The position numbers were made by a program, and so were the translations under genes. This document shows positions 29,276 to 45,582 of a DNA stretch of 64,000 nt, one piece after another. The stretch is from Flavobacterium palustre (GTDB taxonomy: Bacteria > Bacteroidota > Bacteroidia > Flavobacteriales > Flavobacteriaceae). Positions within the stretch are counted from its first letter, which is position 1; each line of letters begins with the position of its first letter. Where the stretch lies: contig NZ_BMGA01000008.1 of the NCBI RefSeq assembly GCF_014639535.1, positions 124,001 through 188,000 on the forward strand. The letters run 5' to 3'. The notes beneath the pieces are model-generated. The model made no database searches. It had not been told where the DNA came from and worked only from the letters and a program-made list of their open reading frames with translations.

Positions 29276-30109
29276 TCAGTTTATTGGAATCGCCAAAACA
29301 GGTATGTCCAAATGAGCCGCACAATCATTGGTCAGGCTATGATGAAATAAATTTTCGAAAAAATTGCGTTTATAGGTTAACATCACCAAAACATCTACCT
29401 CTTTAAACATTATAAAATCCAAAATACTTTCTTTGACTTCTTCACTAAAAATCACATTAAAATCAATTGGTTCATTGGCAAATTCAGTTTCCCATTCTTT
29501 AATGGTTTCTTTAGTCACATCAGAACTGTCTTTTTTAACGTAAAGGCATTTAATTTTTGCTTTCATTTTTTTAGCAATTACTAAAACTTCTCTCAAAGCA
29601 ATTTTATCTTTGGGTCTGAAACGGGTGGTAAAAACAATATTTTTTATGGGTTTAAATGCTGCATTGGCAGGAATACTCAAAACAGGAATACTCACATCAG
29701 AGATTACTGCTGTAGTTTGAGTGCCTAACAATAAATCCGACCAATTCTTAGCTCCTTCGGTTCCCATAATGATATAATCAATATGATCTTCTTTGATCGC
29801 TCTTTCAATAGTTGCTAATAAATTGCCATCCATGAGTCGGTGTGTCATTTTAATAGAACTCAAATTACGTTGTTGAGCAATTGCATGCAGTTTAGGCAAC
29901 TCTTCCTTGAAAACCTCAAACTCCGTCAATTCTACTGATTCGTATATCAGCATGTAATTTTCAGGGAAATACTGACTGTCAAAAACAGGCAAATCAAAAG
30001 CGTGCAACAATATTAACTCACCATCAACACTTTTAGCAAACTCTAAGGCGTGTACAAAAGCATTGGTTGCTGCTTCGGAAAAATCGGTAGGAAATAAGAT
30101 GCGTTTCAT
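29276..30109 (-). CDS. universal stress protein, tandem UspA domains
   Basis: 277 residues from the ATG at 30109 (an upstream TTG at 30118 is less likely). Two UspA domains: the first opens MKRILFPTDFSEAATNAFVHALEFAK and closes YIIMGTEGAKNWSDLLLGTQTTAVISDVSIPVLSIP. The second opens IKNIVFTTRFRPKDKIALREVLVIAKKM and ends VDVLVMLTYKRNFFENLFHHSLTNDCAAHLDIPVLAIP. The G-2x-G-9x-G(S/T) ATP-binding motif is degenerate in both, so nucleotide binding is doubtful. Such tandem Usp proteins are common stress-related cytoplasmic proteins in Bacteroidetes. Divergent from mnmE. Confidence 0.88.
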   Translation of the reverse strand: MKRILFPTDFSEAATNAFVHALEFAKSVDGELILLHAFDLPVFDSQYFPENYMLIYESVELTEFEVFKEELPKLHAIAQQRNLSSIKMTHRLMDGNLLATIERAIKEDHIDYIIMGTEGAKNWSDLLLGTQTTAVISDVSIPVLSIPANAAFKPIKNIVFTTRFRPKDKIALREVLVIAKKMKAKIKCLYVKKDSSDVTKETIKEWETEFANEPIDFNVIFSEEVKESILDFIMFKEVDVLVMLTYKRNFFENLFHHSLTNDCAAHLDIPVLAIPIN

Positions 30110-30229
30110 TGTAAACAACTTAAAAAATTAGACATCGACTGATTGAATAAAGATACAATTTTAACGCTTTAATTCCCAACAAAATGTGCTTTTATATTAA
30201 GCCTTTCAATAATACTTCATTAGATTTAG

Positions 30230-30237
30230 TACCTTTG
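30230..30237 (+). promoter_or_regulatory. -7 element upstream of mnmE
   Basis: TACCTTTG followed by CAG, typical of Flavobacterium promoters; a near-match TTTC lies 22 nt upstream (30204-30207). Start near 30243 leaves a leader of about 13 nt and rules out starts upstream of 30256. Confidence 0.6.
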
Positions 30238-30255
30238 CAGCCAATAATTAAGAAA

Positions 30256-31647
30256 ATGCTAAACAAGGATTCTATAGTAGCACTGGCTACAGCTTCGGGT
30301 GCCGGAGCTATAGCTATTATTCGTATTTCAGGTCAGGATGCGATAGGTATTGCCAACTCTGTTTTTAAATCAATTAAGGAAAAAGACTTAACTAAGCAAA
30401 AAACGCATACTTTGCATTTAGGACATATTGTTGATGGCGCTAAAACACTGGATCAGGTATTGGTTTCTGTATTCAAAGGTCCTAATTCTTATACAGGAGA
30501 AAATACCGTTGAAATTTCCTGTCACGGTTCTACTTATATCCAGCAACAAATTATTCAGTTATTGCTCCGAAAAGGCTGTCGCATGGCCGATGCGGGCGAA
30601 TTTACGCTGCGCGCTTTTTTAAACGGGAAACTCGATTTATCGCAAGCTGAAGCCGTTGCCGATTTGATTGCTTCAGATAATGAAGCCAGTCACCAAATTG
30701 CAATGCAGCAAATGCGCGGTGGATTTTCGAATGAAATTGCCAAACTACGTGAAGAACTATTGAATTTTGCTTCTTTAATCGAACTCGAATTAGACTTTGC
30801 CGAAGAAGATGTGGAATTTGCTGACAGAACTCAGTTCAACGAATTAATCAACCGAATCGAATTTGTTTTAAAACGACTGATCGACTCCTTTGCTGTTGGA
30901 AACGTCATCAAAAACGGTATTCCTGTAGCCATTGTAGGCGAACCAAATGTTGGGAAATCAACACTTTTAAACGCTTTGTTGAACGAAGAACGCGCCATCG
31001 TTTCGGATATTGCCGGAACAACACGTGATACTATCGAAGACGAATTAGTCATTGGAGGAATCGGATTTCGTTTTATCGATACGGCCGGAATTCGTGAAAC
31101 TCAAGACGTAGTAGAAAGCATCGGAATCAAAAAAACTTTTGAAAAAATCGAACAGGCTCAGGTGGTTGTCTATTTAGTGGACAGTGTTCAGTGTTCAGAA
31201 AGCAGTATTAAAAATGTTCAGCTGGAACTCGAAAAAATAAAAAATCAGTTTCCACTAAAACCATTAGTTATTATTGGTAACAAAAAGGATTTACTTTCAG
31301 AATCTCAAATCCAAAATTTAAAATCTGAAATCCAAAATATTCTATTAATTTCTGCTAAACAAAACATCGGAGTCGAAGAACTCAAAAACCAATTGTTGTC
31401 TTTTGTCAACACCGGAGCTTTACGCAACAACGAAACTATTGTGACCAACACAAGACATTATGATTCTTTATTAAAAGCTTTAGAAGAAATCCAAAAAGTA
31501 AAATACGGACTGGAAACCAATCTTTCCAGCGACCTCATGGCTCTTGATATCAAAGAAGCTTTGTATCAATTCGGAATGATTACCGGACAGGTGACTAATG
31601 ATGAATTACTTGGAAATATCTTTGCTAATTTCTGTATTGGGAAGTAG
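30256..31647 (+). CDS. mnmE: tRNA uridine-5-carboxymethylaminomethyl modification GTPase MnmE
   Basis: With MnmG it modifies U34 of certain tRNAs. 463 residues from the ATG at 30256, which follows a promoter element; the frame is open further upstream. The N-terminal folate-binding domain begins DSIVALATASGAGAIAIIRISG. The GTPase domain shows G1 VGEPNVGKST (about 227-236), G2 AGTTRDTIED, G3 DTAGIRET and G4 GNKKD. It ends in the catalytic FCIGK. Between G3 and G5 the protein carries unusual Ser/Gln/Asn stretches (DSVQCSESSIKN and SESQIQNLKSEIQN) encoded by DNA resembling local intergenic words (see findings). MnmG is not in the window. Confidence 0.95.
   Translation: MLNKDSIVALATASGAGAIAIIRISGQDAIGIANSVFKSIKEKDLTKQKTHTLHLGHIVDGAKTLDQVLVSVFKGPNSYTGENTVEISCHGSTYIQQQIIQLLLRKGCRMADAGEFTLRAFLNGKLDLSQAEAVADLIASDNEASHQIAMQQMRGGFSNEIAKLREELLNFASLIELELDFAEEDVEFADRTQFNELINRIEFVLKRLIDSFAVGNVIKNGIPVAIVGEPNVGKSTLLNALLNEERAIVSDIAGTTRDTIEDELVIGGIGFRFIDTAGIRETQDVVESIGIKKTFEKIEQAQVVVYLVDSVQCSESSIKNVQLELEKIKNQFPLKPLVIIGNKKDLLSESQIQNLKSEIQNILLISAKQNIGVEELKNQLLSFVNTGALRNNETIVTNTRHYDSLLKALEEIQKVKYGLETNLSSDLMALDIKEALYQFGMITGQVTNDELLGNIFANFCIGK
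31301..31340. repeat. 20-bp tandem repeat inside mnmE
   Basis: Two adjacent near-copies of AATCTSAAATCCAAAATWTA (31301-31320 and 31321-31340) within the variable segment after the GTPase G4 motif. The word family matches spacer DNA at about 890-925. Confidence 0.65.
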
Positions 31648-31698
31648 TATCAGGAGTTAGAAGTTAAAGTCGGCTTGTGTTTTATCTTTACAGAAGGA

Positions 31699-33234
31699 CT
31701 AGCCCAACCAGCCATCACGATCAAGGCTTCTATATTGTATAGCCTCTGCAATATGATTGGAAACTACATCTTCAGAAGCATCTAAATCGGCGATAGTTCT
31801 GGCTACTTTCAAAATCCGGTCATAAGCCCGGGCCGAAAGATTTAAACGTTCCATAGCGTTTTTTAGTAAAGTTTTAGAATCTTCATCCAAAACACAATAT
31901 TCGCGAATGTGTTTAGTACTCATTTGTGCATTGTAGTGAATGCTGTGCATTTTTTCGAATCGTACCGATTGAATTTCTCTGGCCGCGGTCACTCTTTTTC
32001 GAATGCTCATGCTATTTTCGGTTTTTTGATTGTCGGATAATTTTTCGAAAGGAACAGGGGTTACTTCTATATGAATGTCAATTCGGTCTAATAATGGACC
32101 GGAAATTTTACTTAAATAGCGTTGCATTTCATAAGGAGAAGCAGTTTGAGCGGCATTTGGATCGTTAAAAAATCCACTCGGACTTGGGTTCATACTGGCA
32201 ACTAACATAAATGAGGAAGGATAGGTTACGGTGAATTTGGCTCTCGAAATGGTTACTTCTCTGTCTTCCAGAGGTTGGCGCATGACTTCTAAAACATCCC
32301 GTTTGAATTCAGGTAGTTCGTCTAAAAATAGTACACCATTATGAGCCATTGATATTTCACCCGGTTGGGGGTAACTACCGCCGCCAACAAGCGCTACATT
32401 TGAAATTGTATGATGAGGACTTCTAAAAGGGCGTTGATTCATCAATCCTACTTCTTTGAGTTTTCCCGCCACACTGTGAATTTTAGTGGTTTCCAGTGCT
32501 TCGTGCAATGTCATAGGAGGGAGGATGCTGGGCAGGCGTTTGGCAAGCATGGTTTTTCCTGCTCCGGGAGGACCTATTAAAATAATGTTATGTCCACCGG
32601 CCGCGGCAATTTCCATACATCTTTTTATACTATCCTGACCTTTAACATCGGAAAAGTCAAATTCAGGGAAATCCAAATCTTTGTAAAATTCGGCTCTGGT
32701 GTCGATTCTTGTGGGTTCCAGATTTCCTTTTCCTTGAAAGAAATCAATGATTTCCTGTACGTTTTCAATACCATAAACATCCAGTCCTTTTACTATAGCT
32801 GCTTCTTTTACATTTTGTTTCGGAAGAAAGAAACCTTTAAAACCTTCTTCTTTGGCTTTAATGGCTATTGGTAAAGCGCCTTTTATTGGTTGCAAACTAC
32901 CATCAAGAGATAATTCACCCATAATAATGTATTGGTCAATTTCATCTCCTTGAATTTGTCCTGAAGCAACGAGAATGCCCAGAGTAAGAGTAAGGTCGTA
33001 GGCAGAGCCTTCTTTGCGTAAATCGGCAGGAGCCATATTGATGGTGATTTTTTTACCGGGTAAGATATAACCGTTATTTTTTAATGCGGCTGCAATTCGG
33101 TAACTGCTTTCTTTGATGGCATTGTCAGGTAAACCAACTAAGTGGTAGCCTATTCCTTTATCGATATTTACTTCAACTGTTATAGTTGTGGCTTCTACTC
33201 CAAAAACGGCACTTCCATAGACTTTTACTAGCAT
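31699..33234 (-). CDS. YifB/ComM family magnesium-chelatase-like AAA+ ATPase
   Basis: A 511-residue cytoplasmic protein. The N-terminal Lon-protease-like fold (about 1-170) begins [22 protein letters not shown] and includes [14 protein letters not shown] and [17 protein letters not shown]. The AAA+ domain has Walker [23 protein letters not shown] (about 216-237), Walker [12 protein letters not shown] and [16 protein letters not shown]. The C-terminal Mg-chelatase part ends with the [16 protein letters not shown] block. ComM is a helicase that promotes branch migration during natural transformation in Vibrio and Haemophilus; the role in Flavobacteriaceae is not settled. Convergent with mnmE. 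Confidence 0.92.
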
Positions 33235-33700
33235 ATAGGATATTTTTTATTAAAAATAATAAATTTTGAAATACAAGAATATTTTAGCTTTATAATTTAC
33301 TAAAAAAATGTAAATACTTCTTAATGAGGTTTGTTGATTTTATTCAAGAAGCAATTTTGACGATTATTCAATGATTTGAATATTTACTGCAATTTGTTTT
33401 TAAAATTTTGATTTTGCGAATACAAAAACAGCTTAAATAGATTTTATTTTGCGAAAAATAAAAAACAATAAGATTTTACTTTAAAAATTATTGAGTAAAA
33501 TTGATTTTTTCTCTGAAAATCTTAAAAAATTAAGTATTCGAATTTAACAAATCGTTATTTTTTATATATTTTGAAGGGTGTACCCGTAAAATAATAGGGT
33601 ATAAAATGAATTAATAATAAAAGTGAAAACATTTACCGTGGTTTTTTGGGGGGTGTGTTAGTAGTTTTATATTTTTGGTAAAAATTTAAACCAAAACAAT
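33235..33700. other. yifB-amtB divergent spacer
   Basis: 466 bp, very AT-rich, without an ORF. It holds the amtB promoter (33645-33677) and, 45-60 bp before its -33 box, a GGGT..ACCC..GGGT array (33576-33601, including TACCC-N11-GGGTA) that could be an operator. Nothing else is recognisable in 33235-33570. Confidence 0.5.
33645..33677 (+). promoter_or_regulatory. amtB promoter
   Basis: TTTG (33645-33648), 21 nt, TATTTTTG (33670-33677). Predicted start near 33683, so the leader is under 20 nt. Confidence 0.65.
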
Positions 33701-35014
33701 ATGAGAAAAATTAGTTTAAGTGTGATAATGATTGCTTTATTAGTCGTTACACTATTTTCAAGTTTTATTTTAACTGGAAATCCAGTTCCTTCAGAAGCTG
33801 TTAAATTTGACACAGGAGATACTGCCTGGATGATCGTAGCTACAGCTTTAGTATTAATCATGACTCCTGGATTAGGATTTTTCTATGGTGGTATGGTTGG
33901 TAAGAAAAATGTTATCAGTACAATGTTGCAAAGTTTTATGGCAATGATTATTGTAACAGTTTTATGGATTGTAGTAGGATTTAGTTTGTCTTTTGGAACG
34001 ACAATTGGCGGAATCATAGGTGATCCTACATCATATCCGTTTTTTCAAGGTGTTGGTGTTAATACAGCATGGAGTTTAGCAGGAACTATTCCTTTTATGT
34101 TATTTGCTTTGTTTCAGGCTAAATTTGCTATCATTACTCCTGCTTTAATTACAGGAGCATTTGCAGAAAGAGTACGTTTTTGGGCATATATGTTGTTCAT
34201 GGTTTTGTTCATTTTAGTAATCTATGCACCATTATGTCATATGACTTGGCATCCTGATGGATTATTCTTCAAAATGGGAGTATTAGATTTTGCCGGAGGT
34301 ACAGTAGTACACATGAGTGCAGGATGGGCTGCATTAGCTGGAGCTATATTTTTAGGAAAAAGAAAAATACAAAAAGTTAATCCTGCTCGTATTACTTATG
34401 TATTATTAGGAACAGGTTTATTGTGGTTTGGATGGTTTGGTTTCAACGCTGGTTCTGCTTTGGGATCTAACGGATTAGCTGTTCAGGCTTTAGGAACAAC
34501 TACAGTTGCTGCTGCTGCTGCTGGTATGGCTTGGGTATTTATGGATAAAATATTAGGTCATAAATTATCTGCTATGGGAGCTTGTATTGGAACTGTTGTA
34601 GGTTTAGTTGCGATTACTCCTGCTGCCGGATTTGTAAGTTTACCACATGCTATCTTCATCGGTTTATTCAGTAGTATTGCAAGTAACTTTATGGTGAGCA
34701 AATTCCCTAAAGGTAAAATTGATGATGCTTTAGATGTATTTGCTTGTCACGGTGTTGGTGGTATGGTAGGTATGTTGTTAACTGGAGTTTTTGCTTCTAA
34801 AGATGTAAATGCTGCTGTTGTTGATCAAGGTCTTATTTTTGGTGAATCTACTTTATTTGTCAACCAATTAACTGCATTAGTAATTGTATCTATCTTTGCA
34901 TTCTGTGCTTCTTACGCATTATTCTTTATTGTTAACAAAATCACTCCATTAAGAGTTACTGAAGATAAAGAAGAATTAGGTTTGGATATTTCTCAACACG
35001 GAGAATTTTTGTAA
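33701..35014 (+). CDS. amtB: ammonium transporter
   Basis: A 437-residue Amt/MEP/Rh channel with an N-terminal hydrophobic leader and about eleven membrane helices. The pore residues are visible: the twin His lie in HMTWHPDG and in FACHGVGGMVGMLLTGVFA, the motif FAGGTVVHMSAGWAALAGA is the Amt signature, and WFGWFGFNAGSALG includes the pore Phe region. The usual partner glnK (P-II) is absent on either side, which is unusual for amtB; a P-II gene would have to be elsewhere. Codon use is biased to a few AT-ending codons plus GGA/GCT, as in well-expressed genes. Confidence 0.95.
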   Translation: MRKISLSVIMIALLVVTLFSSFILTGNPVPSEAVKFDTGDTAWMIVATALVLIMTPGLGFFYGGMVGKKNVISTMLQSFMAMIIVTVLWIVVGFSLSFGTTIGGIIGDPTSYPFFQGVGVNTAWSLAGTIPFMLFALFQAKFAIITPALITGAFAERVRFWAYMLFMVLFILVIYAPLCHMTWHPDGLFFKMGVLDFAGGTVVHMSAGWAALAGAIFLGKRKIQKVNPARITYVLLGTGLLWFGWFGFNAGSALGSNGLAVQALGTTTVAAAAAGMAWVFMDKILGHKLSAMGACIGTVVGLVAITPAAGFVSLPHAIFIGLFSSIASNFMVSKFPKGKIDDALDVFACHGVGGMVGMLLTGVFASKDVNAAVVDQGLIFGESTLFVNQLTALVIVSIFAFCASYALFFIVNKITPLRVTEDKEELGLDISQHGEFL

Positions 35015-35060
35015 TCCACTACATTAGGTAATTTATTGAAAACGATAAATTAATCAAAAT

Positions 35061-35106
35061 AAAAAAAGCTTAGCCAAACAATGTAATGTTTGACTAAGCT
35101 TTTTTG
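35061..35106 (+). terminator. intrinsic terminator of amtB
   Basis: Stem of about 19 bp with one mismatch (AAAAAAGCTTAGCCAAACA with TGTTTGACTAAGCTTTTTT), 47 bp after the stop. Confidence 0.9.
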
Positions 35107-35283
35107 TTTGTTTTGATTGCAGATAATTTGTCCCAAATGAAATGCAGTTAGTCGAAGTGTTTCCTTGCTGTCAGTGATTTTTTATGACTGTCCGTTATGC
35201 GAAGTGATGCGTAAAGATAAAACCGATTTATCTGTGAGTTTTTATAATTCTAAGCTGTTTTTCATATAAATTGAAACATGCTT

Positions 35284-35709
35284 TTATATTTTTGGAGTAT
35301 AATCCACCATCCATTCAATGCCAAATTTATCCCTAAACATTCCAAAATAAGAACCCCAGGGACTGTCATCGATTGGACATTCAATGGTTCCTCCTGCTGA
35401 AAGATCGTTGAATAATTTTTCTGCTTCTTCACGGCTTTCGGCACTAATGGATATTTTAGACCTGTTTTCATTTTCGTTTACCCGTCCCATACTTTCCGGA
35501 ACATCATTAGCCATTAAAATGTTATTGCCAATGGGTAAAGCAATGTGCATAATCTTATTTAACTCCTTTTCCGGAACAGGAAATGCATCACTTGCTAAAT
35601 CTTTGAAACGGATAATTTTTGTAAACGTTCCACCAAATACTGATTGGTAAAAAAGAAATGCTTCTTCGGCATTTCCGTTAAAATTAATGTGCGGATTGAT
35701 AAGTGCCAT
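35284..35709 (-). CDS. VOC superfamily protein, PhnB/glyoxalase-like
   Basis: A 141-residue single-domain protein of the vicinal-oxygen-chelate fold, PhnB-like branch (sometimes annotated 3-demethylubiquinone methyltransferase-like). Blocks: NPHINFNGNAEEAFLFYQSVFGGTFTKIIRF, IMHIALPIGNNILMANDVPES, ISISAESREEAEKLFNDLSAGGTIECPIDDSPWGSYFGMFRDKFGIEWMVDY. These branch members are often metal-free and of unknown substrate. The 5' end of the gene, including leader and first codons, is repeated about 100 bp upstream (35785-35835), suggesting loss of a tandem copy. Confidence 0.85.
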   Translation of the reverse strand: MALINPHINFNGNAEEAFLFYQSVFGGTFTKIIRFKDLASDAFPVPEKELNKIMHIALPIGNNILMANDVPESMGRVNENENRSKISISAESREEAEKLFNDLSAGGTIECPIDDSPWGSYFGMFRDKFGIEWMVDYTPKI

Positions 35710-35734
35710 AGATTATTTTTTATGTTGTTGAAAA

Positions 35735-35835
35735 AGTTACTTAACTGTCTTTTCTTTTCGGGCACAAGCGGGACGCTTGCGCTAGCTGAGGGATTGATAA
35801 GTGGCATAAGTTATTTTTTGTAAGTTGTTTTTTAT
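35735..35835 (-). pseudogene. remnant of a duplicated VOC gene start plus palindromic repeat
   Basis: On the minus strand ATGCCACTTATCAATCC at about 35807 repeats the leader and first codons of the adjacent VOC gene (ATGGCACTTATCAATCC), including the preceding ACAAAAAATAACTT/ACATAAAAAATAATCT stretch. After seven codons homology stops at a GCTAGCGCAAGCG-TCC-CGCTTG repeat (CAAGCG/CGCTTG hairpin near 35763-35780). This looks like a deleted tandem paralogue replaced by a dispersed palindrome. Confidence 0.5.
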
Positions 35836-35883
35836 CATAGAATGCAGAGCCGGGAAGTATTTTTGTTTCGGTTTTTCTAACAT

Positions 35884-36001
35884 CTCAATTATCCACAAAC
35901 TTGTCATGCTGACGAAGGAAGCATCTCCACAAGATTTACGTTGGTTGATTTTATTAGCTCACTGTTGCGGAAAACATTTCCGCTATCGGGGCAATCTGCC
36001 T
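35884..36001. repeat. dispersed repeat abutting the LRR-TIR gene
   Basis: Contains TTGTCATGCTGACGAAGGAAGC followed by hairpin-forming TGCGGAAAACATTTCCGC. Sequences of the GTCAT..TGACGAAGGAAG type are, from memory, frequent dispersed repeats in Bacteroidetes. It runs up to the stop codon of the LRR-TIR gene. Confidence 0.45.
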
Positions 36002-37165
36002 TTATCGGTTTTCAAGAATTATTTCTTCAATTCTGTCTGTCAATTTAACTAATATTTCTTCTTGTTTTCCTTCGGATAAATTAATTAAAGAATTATCAGG
36101 GTCATTAATTGCTTGCAAATCATTTAAACCAATTTGATTTTTAAATCTACATGGTTTTATTATTAGTGAAATCAGTTTTGTTCCTTTTTCATTAGCACTA
36201 TTCAATAATTGAGGAATTTCTTTTTTTTGGACAAAGTCTGAAGCAAGAAAATCTGTGGAAATTATTAATATAGCAGCAATAGACCTATTAAGTGCTTTTT
36301 CTATTTCTTCTTTCCATTTTTGCCCAGCTTTTATTCTTGTATCGTCCCAAAAATCAAAATCTATATTTTGATGATTTAAAACTTTTAGGTGAGTTTGTAC
36401 TTTTGATAACCAATCTTTCTTGTCTTTATGAGAATAACTTATAAAGATCATTGGTTTTTCTGTTTTCTCTATACTAGCAATCATTTTGTTGCTACTTGCA
36501 GGGCTAGAATATGTTCTAATTTTATAGTTTGAACTTATTTCTTTTACTTTATCAATACAGTTGCCTTTTATTTTTGAAATTTCAAGATAATCATAATCAA
36601 TGTTAGATTTATCAATAATAAAAGTATAGGCAAATATAGATTTTAGCTTTTTAAGATTTTCTGTAATAAAAGGAATGTTAAATTTTTTTATGGGTAGGTT
36701 TGTTATCCACAAAGATTCTATATTTTTTAAAAAGTATATTGGATTTGGAAATTCAGTCAATAAATTTTTTGATATATTGAGTGAATTTAAATTATCTAGG
36801 CAAGAGAATTCTTCTGGTAATGCTGTTATTTTATTGTTTGCGATACTTAAATTTCTTAATTTTTTAAGATTTGAAATTTGCTTTGGTATAGAACTTATTT
36901 TATTGTTGTTTAAATTCAGTGATTTAAGTTTTTTTAATTCACATATTTTGGCATAGAAATTTGTAATTCTGTTATTTGATAAATCTAAAACTTCTAATAA
37001 TTTAAGATTAGATATTTCTTTGGGAATAGCTTTTATATTGTTATTGCTTAAATTTAATTTTCTTAAATTTTTTAATTCAAAAATTTCTTTTGGAAATTCT
37101 TTTAAACCAGAATTTGATAAATCTAGTTTTGTAATATTTTTTGATTTTATAAATGCTTTTTCCAT
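36002..37165 (-). CDS. leucine-rich-repeat protein with C-terminal TIR domain
   Basis: A 387-residue protein. Residues about 10-155 hold six or so 23-residue leucine-rich repeats of the LxxLxLxxNxIxxIPxxI type (for example LKNLRKLNLSNNNIKAIPKE). A less regular linker follows (about 156-235). Residues about 238-350 form a TIR domain: PMIFISYSHKDKKDWLSK, DFDFWDDTRIKAGQKWKEEIEKAL, ILIISTDFLASDFVQKKEIPQLL. Glu316 in KKEIP is the candidate NADase glutamate. There is no signal peptide, membrane helix or STAND ATPase. The gene is far more AT-rich than its neighbours (10 G/C in 60 bases at 37021-37080) and is flanked by repeats on both sides, signs of acquisition. An immune or self-recognition role is inference. 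Confidence 0.88.
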   Translation of the reverse strand: MEKAFIKSKNITKLDLSNSGLKEFPKEIFELKNLRKLNLSNNNIKAIPKEISNLKLLEVLDLSNNRITNFYAKICELKKLKSLNLNNNKISSIPKQISNLKKLRNLSIANNKITALPEEFSCLDNLNSLNISKNLLTEFPNPIYFLKNIESLWITNLPIKKFNIPFITENLKKLKSIFAYTFIIDKSNIDYDYLEISKIKGNCIDKVKEISSNYKIRTYSSPASSNKMIASIEKTEKPMIFISYSHKDKKDWLSKVQTHLKVLNHQNIDFDFWDDTRIKAGQKWKEEIEKALNRSIAAILIISTDFLASDFVQKKEIPQLLNSANEKGTKLISLIIKPCRFKNQIGLNDLQAINDPDNSLINLSEGKQEEILVKLTDRIEEIILENR

Positions 37166-37215
37166 AATCCAAAAATATAATTTTTATTTGAATTTTTTGG
37201 TTAATTTTGTAGTTC

Positions 37216-37379
37216 CCATAGGAGGTATTGGGAATAAAACAACAAAAGAAGGATTAGAATATGGTGGGTCGGTGATCTGCGGTATAAAAGATATTTTAAG
37301 ACTACTTTGCTTCGGCAACCTCTCGAAATCAATAACTAGTTATTTAAACCTGAGCCGGTCTTTACCACTCAGGTTTTTT
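37216..37379 (+). ncRNA. candidate small RNA upstream of the LRR-TIR gene
   Basis: A -7-like TAATTTTG (37202-37209) is followed by about 160 nt ending in a strong terminator (AACCTGAG 37347-37354 with CTCAGGTT 37368-37375, then six Ts). Internal hairpins are TTCCCATA/TATTGGGAA (37216-37237) and a CTTCGGCAACCTCTCGAA segment. No -33 TTTG is at the right spacing. The segment has higher G+C than the adjacent LRR-TIR gene, from which it diverges. It matches no RNA family I can name. Confidence 0.4.
37347..37379 (+). terminator. orphan intrinsic terminator
   Basis: An 8-bp GC-containing stem with a T-run on the plus strand, where no plus-strand protein gene lies upstream. Confidence 0.75.
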
Positions 37380-37461
37380 GCTATATTAATGTTTCTGACT
37401 TTGTAAATTAAGGAACACGGGACAATCTAGATAATTTATTTCTTCGAAAAACAAAAGTTCT

Positions 37462-37572
37462 AAATAGCTCTGATGGAAGCGGCATCCTCTTGAGGAAGCG
37501 ATAGCGGACGCAAGAGATAGAGCGTACAGCAGGAGGGAAGCTGTTATGAAAAACCATCGTTCTGCTCCTAAA
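37462..37572 (+). repeat. structured dispersed element, copy A
   Basis: Shares with copies at 43641-43728 and 57062-57180 the order CTAAATAGCnCTGAT, GAAGCGGCATCC, GATAGAGC, AGCAGGAGGGAAG and TTCTGCTCCTAAA. It resembles the Flavobacteriaceae structured element I recall as the Flavo-1 RNA motif, but that identity is unverified. Confidence 0.6.
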
Positions 37573-37606
37573 TAAAAAAAAACACCAATCGGTTAGGACT
37601 GGTGTT
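37572..37606 (-). terminator. probable clpB terminator
   Basis: AACACCAAT (37581-37589) pairs with ACTGGTGTT (37598-37606) with one G-T, followed on the minus strand by nine Ts. It lies 130 bp past the clpB stop, beyond an inverted-repeat element. Confidence 0.7.
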
Positions 37607-37628
37607 ATGAAAATTATGTTTCTTGTCT

Positions 37629-37732
37629 GTCATTGCGAGGAACGAAGCAATCACAAAAAGTTGAGCTACTTAGTGAGATTAGCTAAAGCTCAATTCGCTG
37701 CGCTCGGGTGCTTCGCTATCGCTCGCAATGAC
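37629..37732. repeat. MITE-like inverted-repeat element
   Basis: A 104-bp element with perfect 11-bp terminal repeats GTCATTGCGAG (37629-37639) and CTCGCAATGAC (37722-37732), an inner pair GAAGCA/TGCTTC and a central pair TTGAGCT/AGCTCAA (37661-37667 and 37687-37693). It can fold end to end and stops two bases before the clpB stop codon. It has no coding capacity. Confidence 0.75.
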
Positions 37733-37734
37733 TA

Positions 37735-40341
37735 TTAATTGACTGCCTCACTTTGGTTTCTGAAAACCAATTGACCGTCAAAGGCATCTAAAAGGATGAT
37801 ACTGTCGGTAGTGATTTTACCGGCAAGGATTTCCTTAGACAACTGGTTCATAACCTCTCTTTGAATCACACGTTTTACAGGACGGGCGCCAAACTGCGGG
37901 TCGAATCCTTTTTCGGATAAGTAAGCAATCGCTTCCGGAGTAGCATCCATCGTAATACCTTGTTGTGCCAGCATTTTAGTCACCGATTTCAGTTGCAATC
38001 CTACAATTTGCGCAATATTGGCATTGGTCAACGGCGTAAACATCACGATTTCATCAATACGGTTAATGAATTCCGGACGAACGGTTTGTTTCAATAATCC
38101 CAATACTTCTGTTTTAGCAGCCTCAGTAGCGGCTTCAATTCCGCCTTTAAGGTTTTCAAATTTCTCCTGAATAATCTGGCTTCCCATATTAGAAGTCATG
38201 ATGATAATGGAGTTTTTAAAATCAGCCAAACGTCCTTTGTTGTCTGTCAAACGTCCTTCGTCCAAAACCTGCAACAGGATGTTAAAGGTGTCCGGATGCG
38301 CTTTTTCAATTTCGTCCAACAAAATTACTGAATACGGTTTTCTACGCACGGCTTCGGTCAATTGTCCACCTTCATCATAACCCACATATCCCGGAGGCGC
38401 ACCTACCAAACGGCTCACAGCGTGACGTTCCTGATATTCGCTCATATCGATACGGGTCATGGCGTTTTCGTCGTCAAACAGGTATTCGGCCAAAGCTTTT
38501 GCCAATTCGGTTTTCCCCACACCCGTGGTTCCAAGGAATAAGAAAGTACCAACCGGTTTTTTCATATCCTGCAATCCGGCGCGGCTACGGCGTACAGCAT
38601 CACTCACGGCTTCTATGGCTTCTTCCTGACCTACCACACGACGGTGTAGTTCTTCTTCCAGATGCAGGAGTTTTTCTCTTTCGCCCTGCAACATTTTCAC
38701 CACCGGAATTCCGGTCCATTTGGCCACCACTTCGGCAATGTCTTCACGGGTTACTTCTTCTTTTATCAAAGAGCTTCCTCCTGATTGATTTTCCTGTAAT
38801 TCTTTACTAAAAGCTTCCAGACGTTCCTGAGCTTCTTTGATTTTTCCGTATCTGATTTCGGCTACCTTTCCGTAATCACCTTCACGTTCGGCACGTTCAG
38901 CCTCGTATTTAAAATCTTCAATTTCTTTTTTAACCGCCTGAATGTTTTCAACGATGTCTTTTTCTGATTTCCATTTGGCAAAAATCTTGTTGCGTTCTTC
39001 TTTTAAATTGGCCAATTCCAAGCCAAGAATTTTGAGTTTATTTTCATCATTTTCACGTTTAATCGCCTCAATTTCGATTTCGAGCTGCATTACTTTTCTA
39101 TCCAAAACATCTAATTCCTCAGGTTTTGAGTTGATTTCCATTCGGATTTTTGAAGCGGCTTCGTCCATTAAGTCGATGGCTTTATCCGGCAAAAAACGAT
39201 TGGTAATGTAGCGTTGCGACAATTCTACCGCAGCTATAATCGCTTCGTCTTTAATTTGTACCTGATGGTGTGTTTCGTATTTTTCTTTGATACCACGCAA
39301 AATCGAAATAGCACTTTCGGTATCCGGCTCTTCAATGATTACTTTTTGGAAACGTCTTTCAAGGGCTTTGTCTTTTTCGAAATATTTTTGGTATTCGTCC
39401 AAAGTGGTAGCCCCAATAGCGCGCAGTTCACCACGAGCCAAAGCCGGTTTCAAAATATTAGCCGCATCCATAGCACCTTCGCCACCTCCGGCACCTACAA
39501 GCGTGTGAATTTCGTCAATAAATAAAACAATATCCCCTTCGGCAGAAGTTACTTCTTTCACCACCGATTTCAAACGTTCTTCAAATTCTCCTTTGTATTT
39601 GGCTCCCGCAATTAATGCTCCCATATCGAGAGAATACACGATTTTTTCTTTCAGATTTTCCGGTACGTCACCATCTACAATACGATGTGCCAAACCTTCA
39701 GCAATGGCTGTTTTACCCACACCGGGTTCACCCACAAGCATTGGGTTGTTTTTAGTTCTTCGGGTTAAAATTTGCAATACACGTCGAATTTCTTCATCAC
39801 GGCCAATAACCGGATCCAGTTTTCCTGATCGGGCTAATTCGTTGAGGTTTTTAGCGTATTTATTCAAAGAATTATAAGTTTCTTCGGCAGAAGCAGAAGT
39901 TACTCTTTCGCCTTTTCGTAATTCTTCAATGGCGGCTTTTAATGCTTTTTCGGTAACGCCCTGATCTTTTAAGATTTGAGCTACTTTCGATTTTGAAGCA
40001 AAAATAGACAAGATTAAATGTTCGATAGAAACGTATTCGTCGTTCATTTTTTTAGCGATAATTTCGGCTTCGGTTAAGGCTTTATTTGCTTCTCTGGAAA
40101 GCATAATATCACCTCCGGAAACTTTAGGAAAACTTTGAATAGTACTGTCCAGAATTTGCAAAAACAATGGCACATTGACATTGAGTTTTTTCAAAATAAA
40201 AGGAGCCACATTTTCATCGACTTCAAAAATAGCTTTGAAAATGTGTTCGTTTTCTATTTGTTGCTGACCATTACTTTGAGCCAATTGTTGCGAATGCTGA
40301 ATGGCTTCCTGCGATTTGATTGTAAATTTATTGATGTTCAT
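37735..40341 (-). CDS. clpB: ATP-dependent chaperone ClpB
   Basis: A Hsp100 disaggregase working with DnaK. 868 residues, the usual length. N-terminal Clp repeat domain (1-145); NBD1 with Walker [15 protein letters not shown] (about 203-216) and Walker [16 protein letters not shown]; a coiled-coil middle domain (about 400-525, rich in Glu/Lys: [18 protein letters not shown]) that marks ClpB rather than ClpA/C; and NBD2 with [19 protein letters not shown] (about 600-615) and [13 protein letters not shown]. The C-terminus is [19 protein letters not shown]. No CtsR-type operator was recognised. The 3' flank is occupied by the MITE-like element and a terminator. Confidence 0.97.
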
Positions 40342-40355
40342 TTTGTTTTATAGAT

Positions 40356-40384
40356 TTTGTTTCAACTAATATTACTTAACTTTG
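40356..40384 (+). promoter_or_regulatory. promoter of the YtxJ-like gene
   Basis: TTTG (40356-40359), 17 nt, TAACTTTG (40377-40384). Start near 40390, about 105 nt upstream of the chosen ATG. Confidence 0.6.
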
Positions 40385-40494
40385 CAAGAGGTTGGGACAA
40401 ATTATATTCCATAGTAAATTTAAGGACAAAAAGGCATTTAAAAGCTGATTTTTATCAGTTTCAAATGTCAAAAAGTCAGAAAATAAGTCGAAAT

Positions 40495-40884
40495 ATGAGT
40501 TTTTTAAAAAATATCTTCGGGAGCGATGAAGCTCCAAAACAACAGGAATCCAAAATTAATTGGGAAAATCTAACCGATTTAAATCAATTAGGCGAAATTA
40601 TTTTTAATTCTAATGAAAAACCAGCGGTTATTTTTAAACACAGTACCCGATGCAGTATCAGTAGAATGGCTCTGAAGCAATTTGAAAGTGAATTTGCTTT
40701 ACAGGATATAGTTACGCCGTATTTTTTAGATTTATTAAATTATCGTGAGATTTCAAATGAAATAGCCAATCGATTTAATGTTTACCACGAATCGCCACAA
40801 ATTCTTTTAATTAAAGACGGAAAGGCAGTTTATGATGCTTCGCACTCTGATATTGATGCAGAAAGATTGAAGGAGTTTGTTTAG
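40495..40884 (+). CDS. ytxJ: YtxJ-like monothiol bacilliredoxin
   Basis: 129 residues from the ATG at 40495 (MSFLKNIFGS, the usual family opening); in-frame ATGs at 40465 and further upstream are less likely. The thioredoxin-like fold has a single-Cys active site in KHSTRCSISRMALKQFE, as in the bacillithiol-system protein YtxJ (DUF2847). Later blocks VTPYFLDLLNYREISNEIANRF and HESPQILLIKDGKAVYDASHSDI contain the cis-Pro region. It probably removes bacillithiol from mixed disulfides in the cytoplasm; no bacillithiol synthesis gene is in the window. Divergent from clpB. Confidence 0.85.
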   Translation: MSFLKNIFGSDEAPKQQESKINWENLTDLNQLGEIIFNSNEKPAVIFKHSTRCSISRMALKQFESEFALQDIVTPYFLDLLNYREISNEIANRFNVYHESPQILLIKDGKAVYDASHSDIDAERLKEFV

Positions 40885-41104
40885 CTGTTTTTTTAACGCA
40901 AAGAGTACAAAGTTTTTTCGCAAAGATTTTTAAGTTTTGATATTCTTTGCTGTTAAAATTTTACCACAAATTATACAAATTTTCTTTAATCTCTTTGCGG
41001 AAAGCTTTGTGTGCTTTGCGGTTAATTTTTTTGCCACAGATTACACAGATTAATACAGATTTTTATTTTGTGTGCTTTAGTTAATAATTTAGTCATAGAA
41101 AAAG

Positions 41105-41148
41105 AAAGCCACGAATTCACCAATATTATTTAGTGAATTCGTGGCTTT
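41105..41148 (-). terminator. argH terminator built from a dispersed spacer word
   Basis: A 16-bp perfect stem AAAGCCACGAATTCAC (41105-41120) with 41133-41148; the minus strand continues CTTTCTTTTT. The preceding spacer (40885-41100) is made of 'CGCAAAG', 'CACAGATTACACAGATT' and 'ACCACAAATT' words and contains no gene. Confidence 0.85.
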
Positions 41149-41169
41149 TAGTTTTGAAAAGAATCGTAT

Positions 41170-42450
41170 TTACAAAGCCTGCTCCATTTTCTCTTTTATT
41201 TCATTCAAACAAAGGTTGTTGATACTTCCTTCGTGTGAGTGTTTGGTCGCTTTTGGTGATTTGTAATTTCCGGCTTCGATTTGTAGTGCTACTTCTTTAT
41301 AAGCATCTCTAAATGGAATTCCGGCTGTAACCATTTCGTTCAAAGTATCAACGGTAAACAAATAATCGTATTTCTTATCTTCTAAGATATTCTCTTTAAC
41401 CTTGATATCCGGAATGGAGAAAATAGCAATATCCAAACAAGCTTTTAAGTTTTGAATGGCAGGAAAAACACCTTCTTTTAAAAGTTGTAAATCTCTGTGG
41501 TAACCGCTTGGTAAGTTGTTTGTAATTAAAGTTAATTCGTATGGTAATGCCTGAATCTTGTTGCATTTTCCACGGATTAATTCAAATACATCAGGGTTTT
41601 TTTTATGAGGCATAATGCTTGATCCTGTAGTCAGATTGGCCGGTAAGCCAATAAAATCAAAATTCTGACTCATGTATAAACATACGTCATAAGCAAATTT
41701 TGAAAGAGTCCCTGCTACATTTGCCATTGCAAAAGCAACTGTTTTTTCTGATTTTCCGCGGCTCATTTGTGCCGCAACTGAATTGTATTTTAAAGTGCTG
41801 AAACCCATTTCCTGTGTGGTAAACGTTCGGTCAATAGGGAAGGAGCTACCGTATCCTGCAGCAGAACCTAAAGGATTTTGATCGACTACTTTTAAAGCAG
41901 CATTCAGCATACTCATATCGTCTATTAAACTTTCAGCATAAGCTGAAAACCACATACCAAACGAACTCGGCATTGCAATTTGTAAATGCGTATAACCCGG
42001 TAATAAAACGTTTTGGTATTTTTCTGCAGAAGCCATTAATAAATCAAAAAGTGATTTCACCTGTTGTTTTAATTGCAGCACTTCTTCTTTTAAGTACAAA
42101 TTCATATCCACTAAAACCTGGTCGTTACGGGAACGGGCAGTGTGGATTTTTTTTCCGGCATCACCTACTTTTTGGGTAAGTAAATATTCAACTTTTGAAT
42201 GTACGTCTTCAAATGAATCTTCGATAGTAAAATTTCCGGCTTTGATATCTTCCTGGATTTCTGCCAATGCTCCTAATAAATCTTCACATTCCTGATTGGT
42301 AATCAAGCCAATTTTAGCAAGCATTTTGGCCTGAGCGATATTTCCGGTTACATCATGTTTGGCTAAAATCAAATCTAATTCACGGTCGTTTCCAACAGTA
42401 AATAAGTCGATTTGTTTATCAGTAGGTATTCCTTTTTCCCAAAGTTTCAT
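41170..42450 (-). CDS. argH: argininosuccinate lyase
   Basis: Last step of arginine synthesis: argininosuccinate to arginine and fumarate. 426 residues. Fumarase/aspartase-superfamily signatures: MKLWEKGIPTDKQIDLFTVGND start, HTARSRNDQVLVDMNLYLKEE, LPGYTHLQIAMP and TTGSSIMPHKKNPD (the GSSxMPxKxNP flexible loop with the catalytic Ser). It is separated from argE by a DUF1016 nuclease gene and by a structured repeat, and has its own promoter (TATCTTTG at 42477-42470), so it may be expressed independently of the rest of the cluster. Confidence 0.96.
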   Translation of the reverse strand: MKLWEKGIPTDKQIDLFTVGNDRELDLILAKHDVTGNIAQAKMLAKIGLITNQECEDLLGALAEIQEDIKAGNFTIEDSFEDVHSKVEYLLTQKVGDAGKKIHTARSRNDQVLVDMNLYLKEEVLQLKQQVKSLFDLLMASAEKYQNVLLPGYTHLQIAMPSSFGMWFSAYAESLIDDMSMLNAALKVVDQNPLGSAAGYGSSFPIDRTFTTQEMGFSTLKYNSVAAQMSRGKSEKTVAFAMANVAGTLSKFAYDVCLYMSQNFDFIGLPANLTTGSSIMPHKKNPDVFELIRGKCNKIQALPYELTLITNNLPSGYHRDLQLLKEGVFPAIQNLKACLDIAIFSIPDIKVKENILEDKKYDYLFTVDTLNEMVTAGIPFRDAYKEVALQIEAGNYKSPKATKHSHEGSINNLCLNEIKEKMEQAL

Positions 42451-42469
42451 AATTGTGTTTTTTGTTTCG

Positions 42470-42504
42470 CAAAGATACTCAGAGATTACTCAGAGATTCG
42501 CAAA
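42470..42504 (-). promoter_or_regulatory. argH promoter
   Basis: On the minus strand TTTG (42504-42501), 23 nt, TATCTTTG (42477-42470), followed by GCGAAAC. Start near 42466. The region consists of CTCAGAGATTA and CGCAAAG words, so a dispersed word here supplies the promoter. Confidence 0.6.
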
Positions 42505-42518
42505 GTTTTTATTTTGAA

Positions 42519-43529
42519 TTATTTAAATTTATCTAATAATTTTAGTTTAATCTTCTCTCTTTCTATTTCTTCTATCAATTCCTGTTCAGTAGGTAAAAAA
42601 GGCATATATTTAGTTGCAAAAAGCTGTGGTGTTTCTTGCATTATCGAATATTTTACTACTGTTTCGCTTTTTTCAGTACATAAAATAATACCAATTGTAG
42701 GATTGTCTCCTTCAGGTTTTTTTACATCATCGTACATTCGTCTGTACATATCCATTTGACCGATATCTTGATGAGTGAGTTTCCCTATTTTCAAATCGAA
42801 TAAAACAAAGCATTTTAGTAAATAATTGTAAAAAACCAAATCGATATAAAAGTGATCTGTTTCGGTACTTATACGTTGTTGTCTGGCTACAAAAGAAAAA
42901 CCTTTTCCTAATTCCATCAGGAATTGTTGCAGATTTTCTATTAAAGCAGTTTCAATTTCATTTTCAGATTCATTTGATGCTGGCGTAATATTCAAAAATT
43001 CAAAAACATAAGGGTCTTTTATGAAATCGCCTATTTTTGGAGAGCTATCTTCATTTTTTATTATTTCAGAATGTGTTTGAGAAGACAATAATCTTTGATA
43101 ATAGAGTGTATTGATATTGCGTTCTAAAACTCTTGAACTCCAATTTTGTGCGCTACTCTCCTGAAGATAATAATTTCTAGCCATTTCATTTTCGACTCTC
43201 ATTATTAATCTATGATGTGTCCAACTCAATTTGCTACGCAGTGCGTAGCAAATTGAATTTTCAGGATAAGTAAGGTAAAATTGCCTGAAATTACGAAGAT
43301 TTGCAGAAGAAAAACCTTTTCCAAATTCGGCAGTAAGACTGATGGAAAGTTCTTTTAAGACAGACTCACCATAAGCAGCTTTTTTATCTCCATTTTGTTC
43401 CTGTTCCACTATTCTTTTTCCAATTTCCCAATATGCCTCGACCATTACCGAATTGATGGTTTGGTAGGCATTAAATCTTGCTTTGGCAAGTATTTGCTTA
43501 ATTTCCTGAATGTAATTAAGTTGGGTCAT
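42519..43529 (-). CDS. DUF1016/YhcG-family PD-(D/E)XK nuclease
   Basis: A 336-residue protein. The N-terminal DUF1016_N domain (about 1-150) includes INSVMVEAYWEIGKRIVEQEQ, GKGFSSANLRNFRQFYLTYP and ALRSKLSWTHHRLIMRVENEMARNYYLQE. The C-terminal nuclease domain has FYIDLVFYNYLLKCFVLFDLKIGKLTHQDIGQMDMY, in which Asp...DLK matches the PD-(D/E)XK pattern with Asp in place of the more usual Glu (ELK), and TIGIILCTEKSETVVKYS. The role is unknown; family members often accompany restriction-modification loci. It interrupts the arginine genes and has no partner here. A 31-bp perfect palindrome lies inside it. Confidence 0.87.
   Translation of the reverse strand: MTQLNYIQEIKQILAKARFNAYQTINSVMVEAYWEIGKRIVEQEQNGDKKAAYGESVLKELSISLTAEFGKGFSSANLRNFRQFYLTYPENSICYALRSKLSWTHHRLIMRVENEMARNYYLQESSAQNWSSRVLERNINTLYYQRLLSSQTHSEIIKNEDSSPKIGDFIKDPYVFEFLNITPASNESENEIETALIENLQQFLMELGKGFSFVARQQRISTETDHFYIDLVFYNYLLKCFVLFDLKIGKLTHQDIGQMDMYRRMYDDVKKPEGDNPTIGIILCTEKSETVVKYSIMQETPQLFATKYMPFLPTEQELIEEIEREKIKLKLLDKFK
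43226..43256. repeat. 31-bp perfect palindrome inside the DUF1016 gene
   Basis: Two 15-nt arms TCAATTTGCTACGCA (43226-43240) and its complement (43242-43256) around one base. It encodes SICYALRSKL (about residues 92-101), just before the conserved LSWTHxR block. Confidence 0.9.
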
Positions 43530-43640
43530 TTTTTATAGTGTTTAAAAATGCAAACTGTAATTTTTTTGTTTCTCAGAGTTTCGCAAAGGAAGCTCAAAGA
43601 TTCAAAAAGTTTTTATTTTTATAAATTGACTTAGTTTCCT

Positions 43641-43728
43641 AAATCCTTAGCCCCGATAGAAGCGATATCCTTTTCCTGCTTTCTTTAAGCAGGGAAAGAT
43701 AAAGCTGATAGCGGGATTAGCTACTAAA
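43641..43728 (+). repeat. structured dispersed element, copy B
   Basis: Order: CCTAAATCCTTAGCCCCGAT, GAAGCGATATCC, an internal hairpin CCTGCTT-TCTTT-AAGCAGG (43675-43693), GATAAAGCTGATAGCGGGA and AGCTACTAAAT. Its last bases overlap the argE stop codon (argE runs on the opposite strand). Confidence 0.6.
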
Positions 43729-44797: not shown

Positions 44798-45582
44798 AAA
44801 GTTATTGTAGTATGCAATGCCGCTTTATTTTGTAACATTCTGTGATGACCAATTTTTATTTTTTGCACTCCTTTGGACAGGCTGTTGAAGCAGTTGTCTA
44901 ATTTTGGAATCATTCCCGAATGAATGGCACCTTCTTCTTTTAATTGCGAATAAAGTTCAGAATTGATTTGCTGAATTACTGAATCCTCATCCTCAACATC
45001 TGTTAAAACACCGGCTTTTTCAAAACAATAATTCAGAGTAACTTCAAAAACTTCTGAAGCTGCAATGGCCAATTCGCTGGCAATAGTGTCAGCATTAGTA
45101 TTTAATAATTGCCCGTTTTTATCGTGCGTAATGGCACAAAAAACAGGAACAATTCCGCTATTGATTAAAGTTTGCAATAAAGGGGTATTTACTTTTTGAA
45201 CATCGCCTACAAAACCGTAATCAATGGTTGGATGATTTCTTTTGGTGGATTGGATTAAATTTCCGTCAGCACCCGAAAATCCCATTGCATTGGTGTTATT
45301 AGCCTGTAATTGGGCTACTATATTTTTGTTGATTTCTCCAGCGTAAATCATAACCACTACATCCAGCATTGGTTTATCGGTAATTCTTCTTCCTTCAATC
45401 ATTTGAGGGACTAAGCCGATGCTTTGCGCCATTTTAGTAGCTGATTTTCCGCCACCGTGAACCAAGATTTTATTGCCTTCAATCTTAGAAAAATCTGCTA
45501 AGAAATTAGTTAATTCTGCAGGATTATCAATGATGTTTCCACCGATTTTTATGATAGATAATGGTTGCTTATTTTTTTCCAT
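44794..45582 (-). CDS. argB: N-acylglutamate kinase
   Basis: A 262-residue amino-acid kinase phosphorylating the gamma-carboxyl of N-acylglutamate. SIIKIGGNIIDNP is the N-terminal phosphate loop, KILVHGGGKSATKMAQSIG the acylglutamate site, and GFSGADGNLIQS, LLNTNADTIASELA and a late IHSGMIPKLDNC are typical. It lacks the long N-terminal arginine-sensing helix, so arginine feedback inhibition of the hexameric type is unlikely. It overlaps argF' by 14 bp and argE by 4 bp. The true acyl group (acetyl or succinyl) is inferred from argF'. Confidence 0.92.
   Translation of the reverse strand: MEKNKQPLSIIKIGGNIIDNPAELTNFLADFSKIEGNKILVHGGGKSATKMAQSIGLVPQMIEGRRITDKPMLDVVVMIYAGEINKNIVAQLQANNTNAMGFSGADGNLIQSTKRNHPTIDYGFVGDVQKVNTPLLQTLINSGIVPVFCAITHDKNGQLLNTNADTIASELAIAASEVFEVTLNYCFEKAGVLTDVEDEDSVIQQINSELYSQLKEEGAIHSGMIPKLDNCFNSLSKGVQKIKIGHHRMLQNKAALHTTITL

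What the first reader, a model, noticed from the sequence alone, without database searches (positions are those of the whole stretch)
36002..37165. Leucine-rich-repeat plus TIR protein in a bacterial islet
Sequence shows about six leucine-rich repeats (residues 10-155) joined to a C-terminal TIR domain with ISYSHKDKKDW, WDD and a candidate catalytic Glu316. The order (LRR then TIR, no nucleotide-binding STAND module) is a reduced relative of NLR immune receptors. TIR domains in bacterial defence systems cleave NAD+ or make signalling nucleotides; here the LRR could be the sensor and TIR the effector in one chain. The gene is much more AT-rich than clpB next door (10 of 60 G/C at 37021-37080 against 29 of 60 at 38401-38460), and is bounded by repeats on both sides. 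It could be a single-gene anti-phage or self-recognition system.
Basis: partly seen in the sequence, partly recalled or inferred. Interest (0 to 1): 0.75.

Follow-up and report, generated by a model that had tools for sequence, protein, structure and literature searches.

The report
Bacterial LRR sensor with swappable effectors
A lone, very AT-rich Flavobacterium gene encodes a leucine-rich-repeat sensor fused directly to a TIR enzyme domain; rare relatives keep the same sensor but carry other cell-death modules, so it is probably a compact single-gene defence protein that works without the usual NTPase switch.

Summary
The 387-aa gene at 36002-37165 (-) encodes leucine-rich repeats, a helical linker and a TIR domain, with E316 at the NADase position. 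It is the only TIR_2 match in this genome and has the lowest GC of 44 ORFs of 150 aa or more in the window. Its sensor (LRR with a FYAKI-type third repeat plus a KGN linker) defines a rare family: 5 of 397 family genomes and 3 of 395 class genomes, this one included both times. I found nine distinct members: seven end in TIR, one in SEFIR (strong match to the bSEFIR defence model), one in EAD11 beside caspase and subtilase genes. The SEFIR member groups with a TIR member in the sensor tree (99/97), so an effector was swapped. One member lies in a prophage beside AbiH; others lie among ordinary genes. The closest known kind is the bacterial LRR-Roc-COR (AP-GTPase) conflict proteins, whose C-terminal effectors also vary; Roc-COR is absent here. 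'LRR sensor, TIR effector' is well supported by comparison, but nothing shows phage defence or NAD+ cleavage directly. The flanking repeats are ordinary dispersed elements plus a Flavo-1 RNA. Verdict: new variant of a known kind.

The parts
36002..37165 (-). LRR-TIR gene, 387 aa
36626..37138 (-). leucine-rich-repeat solenoid, residues 10-180 (sensor)
   Evidence: Pfam LRR_8/LRR_14; AlphaFold; Foldseek hits to Leptospira LRR proteins and the Chlorobium tepidum Roco LRR
36944..36958 (-). irregular third-repeat motif FYAKI (residues 70-74); Y71 and I74 identical in 9 of 9 sensors
36560..36568 (-). KGN linker motif (residues 200-202), in 8 of 8 aligned sensors; RGN in the ninth (G396)
36509..36595 (-). 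helical linker, residues 191-219
   Evidence: DSSP on the AlphaFold model
36464..36517 (-). flexible hinge, residues 217-234, pLDDT below 50
36005..36451 (-). TIR domain, residues 239-387 (effector)
   Evidence: TIR_2 60.7 bits; domain model pLDDT 91.7, pTM 0.88; Foldseek hits to plant NLR TIR, SPARTA TIR, AbTir
36218..36220 (-). codon of candidate catalytic Glu316; invariant in 16 of 16 aligned TIR rows
   Evidence: aligned with a Glu of AbTIR
37462..37540 (+). Flavo-1 RNA element upstream of the gene; not thought to belong to the system
   Evidence: Rfam RF01705, 47.6 bits, gathering 42
37735..40341 (-). clpB (named by reading), neighbouring housekeeping gene; what lies downstream of it varies between Flavobacterium genomes

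Best explanation
A cytosolic, single-chain immune receptor. Shown by comparison: an N-terminal LRR plus KGN-linker sensor module is kept while the C-terminal module is exchanged (TIR here; SEFIR or EAD11 elsewhere). Inferred: in the uninfected cell the protein is inactive; an invader product, or a host protein disturbed by infection, binds the concave LRR face, where residues of repeats 3-4 (D61, S63, K81, N84, N86) are fixed in all nine sensors. Binding lets several chains cluster through the flexible hinge so that TIR domains stack and cleave NAD+ (E316), stopping growth of the infected cell. No separate NTPase switch is present; clustering or release from autoinhibition would replace it.
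For: LRR, linker and TIR domains with confident domain models. E316 invariant in 16 of 16 TIR rows and aligned with a Glu of the NAD+ hydrolase AbTIR (that this is its catalytic residue is recalled). Same sensor, three kinds of C-terminus: TIR in 7, SEFIR in 1 (PADLOC bSEFIR 1.7e-30), EAD11 in 1 (29.5 bits, cut-off 26), the last beside caspase (5.5e-15) and subtilase (4.1e-28) genes. The SEFIR member groups with the Chryseobacterium TIR member in the sensor tree, 99/97. The sensor family is rare and distinct: 5 of 397 family genomes at E<=1e-40; in 395 class genomes 311.9, 290.3 and 275.7 bits, then 127.5; own genome included in both. Context: the G545 member lies between phage tail/virion-type genes and an integrase, beside AbiH; the G402 member lies near a tyrosine recombinase and a gene matching PDC-S60, a PADLOC candidate; a related LRR-TIR of Bacteroides muris lies beside conjugative-transposon genes TraK, TraM and TraN. 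The eight other members and L168 are 6.5-16 GC points below the rest of their loci. It is the only TIR_2 match in its genome, so no second TIR_2 protein is there to act with it.
Against: No activity, ligand or phage phenotype was or could be measured. The window neighbourhood reads mostly as housekeeping. L151 lies among housekeeping genes and L100 between a Bro-N and an OmpH gene. PADLOC hits of the window protein cover only the TIR part of known models. The full-length model has pTM 0.56, so how the two halves sit together is not predicted. In the sensor tree only 1 of 6 inner branches is well supported, and the EAD11 row is long. The conserved concave patch would also fit a fixed host partner, and K13 of repeat 1 is fixed too. 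Low GC may follow from the Lys/Asn/Ile-rich make-up of such proteins and is weak evidence of transfer.
Confidence: 0.6

Rival explanations
1. Signalling rather than direct depletion: the TIR makes a cyclic ADP-ribose type signal that activates a separate effector encoded elsewhere (Thoeris-like).
For: Best PADLOC match is ThsB, 53.8 bits, residues 239-343; the best sequence match in solved structures is AbTIR, recalled to make a cyclic ADPR.
Against: No partner gene recognised beside it (by reading); the sensor is also joined to SEFIR or EAD11, modules that do not imply a shared downstream receptor. The STALD (ThsA) search found nothing in 7 genomes, but it rang in none of its 14 control genomes either, so it is inconclusive.
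Confidence: 0.2
2. A toxin or injected effector aimed at other cells (LRR effector type) rather than an internal defence protein.
For: NCBIfam LRR hits include the type III effectors XopL and XopAC at about 76 bits.
Against: Those scores are far below the cut-offs (500 and 450) and lie in the LRR part only; no signal peptide or transmembrane stretch is seen by reading the sequence (no predictor was run); some homologues lie in a prophage, near a recombinase and near defence-type genes.
Confidence: 0.06
3. A regulator or adaptor without catalysis: the LRR binds a host protein and TIR serves as a clustering scaffold.
For: Several LRR3-4 concave residues are fixed across genera, as expected for a fixed partner.
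Against: E316, D275, W273 and S309 are invariant in 14 of 14 and 16 of 16 aligned TIR rows; the family is rare and its effector is exchanged.
Confidence: 0.1

Closest known systems
Bacterial LRR-Roc-COR proteins (ROCO / AP-GTPase conflict systems; Kaur et al. 2021, PMC8195603: section 15 and found passages read)
   Same: N-terminal LRRs with a variable C-terminal effector such as TIR, caspase or an EAD; TIR domains of some are 48-53% identical to this one (Roc-COR shown by Pfam for L110 and L157)
   Different: No Roc GTPase and no COR; the whole protein is 387 aa and only about 60 residues separate LRR and TIR
bSEFIR defence protein (PADLOC model PDLC03957)
   Same: A sibling (G107) joins the same LRR sensor to a SEFIR domain matching this model at 1.7e-30
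   Different: The window protein carries TIR_2, not SEFIR
Thoeris ThsB and other bacterial TIR effectors
   Same: TIR_2-type domain with a candidate catalytic Glu
   Different: LRR fused in cis; no ThsA-like gene recognised beside it
NLRs and Toll-like receptors of plants and animals
   Same: LRR recognition module and TIR output module
   Different: No STAND NTPase (as in NLRs), no transmembrane helix seen (as in TLRs); likeness of parts only
EAD11 / caspase systems (EAD principle, Kaur et al. 2021, passages read)
   Same: One sibling (G396) ends in EAD11 beside caspase and subtilase genes
   Different: The window protein carries its presumed enzyme in cis

Membership tests
Bacterial LRR-ROCO (AP-GTPase) proteins | N-terminal LRRs | tested here: met
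   Foldseek rank 6 is the C. tepidum Roco LRR-Roc-COR structure
Bacterial LRR-ROCO (AP-GTPase) proteins | Roc GTPase and COR domain | tested here: not met
   No Roc or COR match up to E=1 in the window protein, whereas L157 and L110 match both strongly
NLR / STAND receptors | NACHT, NB-ARC or other STAND NTPase | tested here: not met
   No NTPase family up to E=1; about 60 residues between LRR and TIR
Toll-like receptors | Transmembrane helix between LRR and TIR | tested here: not met
   Residues 181-238 hold short helices and a disordered hinge; no long hydrophobic segment by reading (no TM predictor was run)
TIR NADases | TIR fold with a Glu at the catalytic position | tested here: met
   Domain model pTM 0.88, Foldseek to plant NLR, SPARTA and AbTir TIRs; E316 invariant in 16 of 16
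TIR NADases | NAD+ cleavage | not testable with these tools
   needs enzyme assay
Thoeris | ThsA (STALD) partner | tested here: inconclusive
   0 of 7 genomes, but 0 of 14 control genomes rang; none recognised beside the window gene by reading
bSEFIR | SEFIR domain | tested here: not met
   Window protein matches TIR_2 and not SEFIR up to E=1; SEFIR only in the sibling L102/L003
XopL/XopAC type III effectors | Score above the curated cut-off of the family | tested here: not met
   76.1 and 75.6 bits against cut-offs 500 and 450
Anti-phage system | Reduces phage infection | not testable with these tools
   needs plaque assays

The most novel reading that the evidence does not exclude
This is one of a family of NTPase-free bacterial pattern-recognition receptors that my searches did not find described: one conserved LRR-KGN sensor that recognises a common invader or infection-stress signal and is plugged into interchangeable death modules (TIR or SEFIR in cis, or EAD11 recruiting a caspase in trans), reaching with two domains what NLR and ROCO proteins do with three.
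Probability: 0.4. Interest if true: 0.78.

Novelty: new variant of a known kind. Interest (0 to 1): 0.62.

Why it matters
If right, it shows that in bacteria an LRR sensor can drive TIR-type immunity without a nucleotide-switch module, and gives a natural domain-swap series (TIR, SEFIR, EAD11) on one sensor. That makes it testable which part recognises infection, and how an LRR alone can gate a TIR enzyme, in a protein of under 400 residues.

Tried and rejected
Rejected: the gene as part of a conserved clpB neighbourhood. Of 160 genus genomes searched with the ClpB C-terminus, 141 matched; I fetched the clpB-downstream stretch of the 40 best apart from the window and G025. 8 of the 40 stretches are short (601-3966 bases, contig ends). 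tblastn of the window protein finds nothing at E<=0.01 in the 40, and only a TIR match (41%) in G025 (ORF listing, at most 6 per stretch). The other 99 matching genomes were not looked at there. Nine genes of that spot, picked by eye, were scanned: GmrSD, AAA_15, a D12 methyltransferase, a YobI-type ATPase, a PLD protein, a Mutator transposase, an M57 peptidase, and two without a match. The spot varies; as the genes were picked, this gives no rate of defence genes.

Rejected: matched flanking repeats as a mobile unit; only short dispersed elements, and no tRNA gene at 30000-46000.

Led nowhere: phage records (2 records, LRR part only); plasmids (35 records, none covering 80% of the query, 15 listed); viral contigs (3 distant TIR relatives at 29-33%); STALD search (controls silent); a test of single origin of the TIR in LRR-TIR proteins: the TIR tree needs 5 changes for the LRR label, but well-supported branches force only 1, so one origin is not excluded. 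L168 (Bacteroides muris) is LRR-TIR but lacks the FY and KGN motifs by reading and was left out of the nine-member count. The labels HTHlike, HTH, NDT and MPE in the tree are my readings: Pfam found only TIR families in G022, G025, G272 and G738, and L158, L160 and L162 were not scanned.

Literature: no listed title or abstract concerns a bacterial LRR-TIR protein. These lists were capped: 18 of 19, 0 of 0, 20 of 540, 20 of 539, 20 of 139, 0 of 0, 12 of 18, 12 of 20 and 12 of 23 papers. PMC8195603: section 15 and found passages; PMC7075850: found passages; PMC13142454: found passages and outline with abstract; PMC12169576: outline with abstract; all others as search listings.

Full report
Observation. 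The ORF at 36002-37165 on the minus strand is intact and encodes 387 residues. Pfam finds LRR families and TIR_2 far above their cut-offs, and no NTPase, Roc, COR or SEFIR match up to E=1. The AlphaFold model has an LRR solenoid to about residue 180, short helices, a low-confidence hinge at 217-234 and a TIR fold (mean pLDDT 86.1, pTM 0.56). The modest pTM means that the relative placement of the two halves is not predicted. The TIR domain alone models at pLDDT 91.7 and pTM 0.88, and its structural neighbours are TIR domains of plant NLRs (rank 1), SPARTA (rank 4) and AbTir (rank 11). A profile of 16 TIR rows finds AbTIR first among solved structures, at a modest 36 bits, with the Glu of the ELP-type motif aligned; E316 is invariant in 16 of 16 rows. 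That this Glu is the catalytic residue of AbTIR is recalled, not from a call.

Setting. The gene lies between a glyoxalase-type gene and clpB, in a window that reads mostly as housekeeping. It has the lowest GC (23.4%) of 44 ORFs of 150 aa or more and is the only TIR_2 match of the genome. The flanking repeats are short dispersed elements with copies elsewhere and a Flavo-1 RNA. The position is not conserved: in 40 further genus genomes whose clpB-downstream stretch I fetched (8 of them short), tblastn finds no relative, while G025 has a different TIR protein there whose TIR is 41% identical. In 150 relatives searched with the whole protein, 67 match at E<=0.001, nearly all listed matches being LRR stretches; after the own gene the best are G107 (LRR-SEFIR, 157.8 bits) and the TIR-only matches in G022 and G025.

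Family. A profile of the sensor (LRR plus linker; A3, 8 rows) separates a small family from the many generic LRR proteins: in 395 genomes of the class (288 match at E<=1e-15) the scores are 311.9 (own), 290.3 (G107) and 275.7 (G545), then 127.5; in 397 genomes of the family, 5 pass E<=1e-40, own included, at 207 to 324 bits. A scan of genome contigs (80 loci kept of 95 relatives) added Algibacter (L151) and a Chryseobacterium MAG (L154), and gave names to two others (Thermobacterium salinum = G433, Maribacter vaceletii = G481; proteins identical). Nine distinct members were found in all. Shared marks are Y71 and I74 in an irregular third repeat and W153 (each identical in 9 of 9) and a KGN linker motif (8 of 8 in A3; RGN in G396). 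On the concave side of repeats 3 and 4, D61, S63, K81, N84 and N86 are identical in all nine; K13 in repeat 1 and S132 in repeat 6 are too, while repeat 5 varies most (the assignment of residues to the concave face follows the general LRR pattern and was not measured on the model).

Exchange of the C-terminal module. Seven members end in TIR. In G107 the same sensor (42% identity over 265 residues) ends in a SEFIR domain (47.9 bits, cut-off 23) that matches the PADLOC bSEFIR model at 1.7e-30. In G396 it ends in EAD11 (29.5 bits, cut-off 26), beside a convergent caspase gene whose own EAD11 match is only 13.3 bits, a subtilase gene, and another protein with a sub-threshold EAD11 match of 21.2 bits; weak Lamassu/Wadjet-like matches lie next door (LmuB 25.5 bits, JetC 17.8). 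In the sensor tree the SEFIR member pairs with the Chryseobacterium TIR member (99/97), so at least one exchange happened inside the family; the other five inner branches of that small tree are open. In the other direction, close relatives of this TIR (41-53% identity) occur on proteins with other, mostly unassigned N-termini and on LRR-Roc-COR proteins. Roc-COR was shown by Pfam for L110 and L157 and read by eye for L107; L107 and L110 lie next to type I restriction-modification genes, named by reading.

Neighbourhoods of relatives. G545: between tail/virion-type genes and an integrase, beside AbiH. G402: near a tyrosine recombinase and a metallophosphatase-nSTAND protein matching PDC-S60. 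L154: beside a second TIR gene downstream of a GroEL gene (GroEL by reading). G433: on an 8.5-kb contig with a weak PLD-like match (20.8 bits, cut-off 27) and a Barstar-like gene. G481: between a Bro-N gene and OmpH. L151: among housekeeping genes such as yaaA. G107: beside a DUF6119 gene. So the defence association is suggestive, not uniform, and no control set of random genes was compared.

Mechanism. Shown: domain make-up, conserved active-site residues, rarity, exchange of effector modules. Inferred: cytosolic site, sensing by the LRR, clustering, NAD+ cleavage and growth arrest. The conserved concave residues suggest one common ligand, either an invader product or a host component changed by infection. 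Indirect sensing through the chaperone DnaJ has been reported for bNACHT25 (PMC12169576, abstract read); two members here sit beside chaperone genes, but the clpB-side spot varies among genomes, so I give no weight to a link.

Known or new. Kaur et al. (PMC8195603, section 15 read) describe bacterial AP-GTPase proteins with LRRs and at least 24 different C-terminal domains, TIR and EADs among them. The present family follows the same plan without the GTPase and COR parts. My paper searches (capped lists, titles and abstracts) showed nothing on an NTPase-free bacterial LRR-TIR family; most subscription papers are not in that library, and such proteins may well be listed in domain databases that I could not see. 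I therefore call it a new variant of a known kind.

Noticed in passing
window 42519-43529 (-): A gene that reads like a DUF1016/PDDEXK nuclease (name recalled, not searched) lies between argH and the next arginine-pathway gene, with a Flavo-1 RNA at 43645-43722; in G025 (L103) these two genes are adjacent without it.
   Followed up: no
L106 1418-4331: Three consecutive genes: N-terminal TIR protein, a TPR-S protein, and a ThsB-like TIR protein; may be a multi-gene TIR defence system.
   Followed up: partly
L258 1-12634: LRR-EAD11, caspase, subtilase and a second EAD11-like protein next to genes with weak Lamassu/Wadjet-like matches.
   Followed up: partly
L005 / L103 8128-8928: In G025 a TIR protein with a different, unassigned N-terminus sits directly downstream of clpB, the same spot as the window gene; a near relative occurs in G022 near copies of what reads like a transposase.
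   Followed up: partly
window 37166-37177 (-): A TATTTTTG stretch (resembling the Bacteroidota -7 box TAnnTTTG, recalled) ends only 4 bases before the ATG, so the mRNA may be leaderless.
   Followed up: no
L154 1777-4068: A TIR protein with a weak RDD membrane-domain match (18.2 bits, cut-off 24.1) lies between a GroEL gene and the LRR-TIR gene.
   Followed up: no
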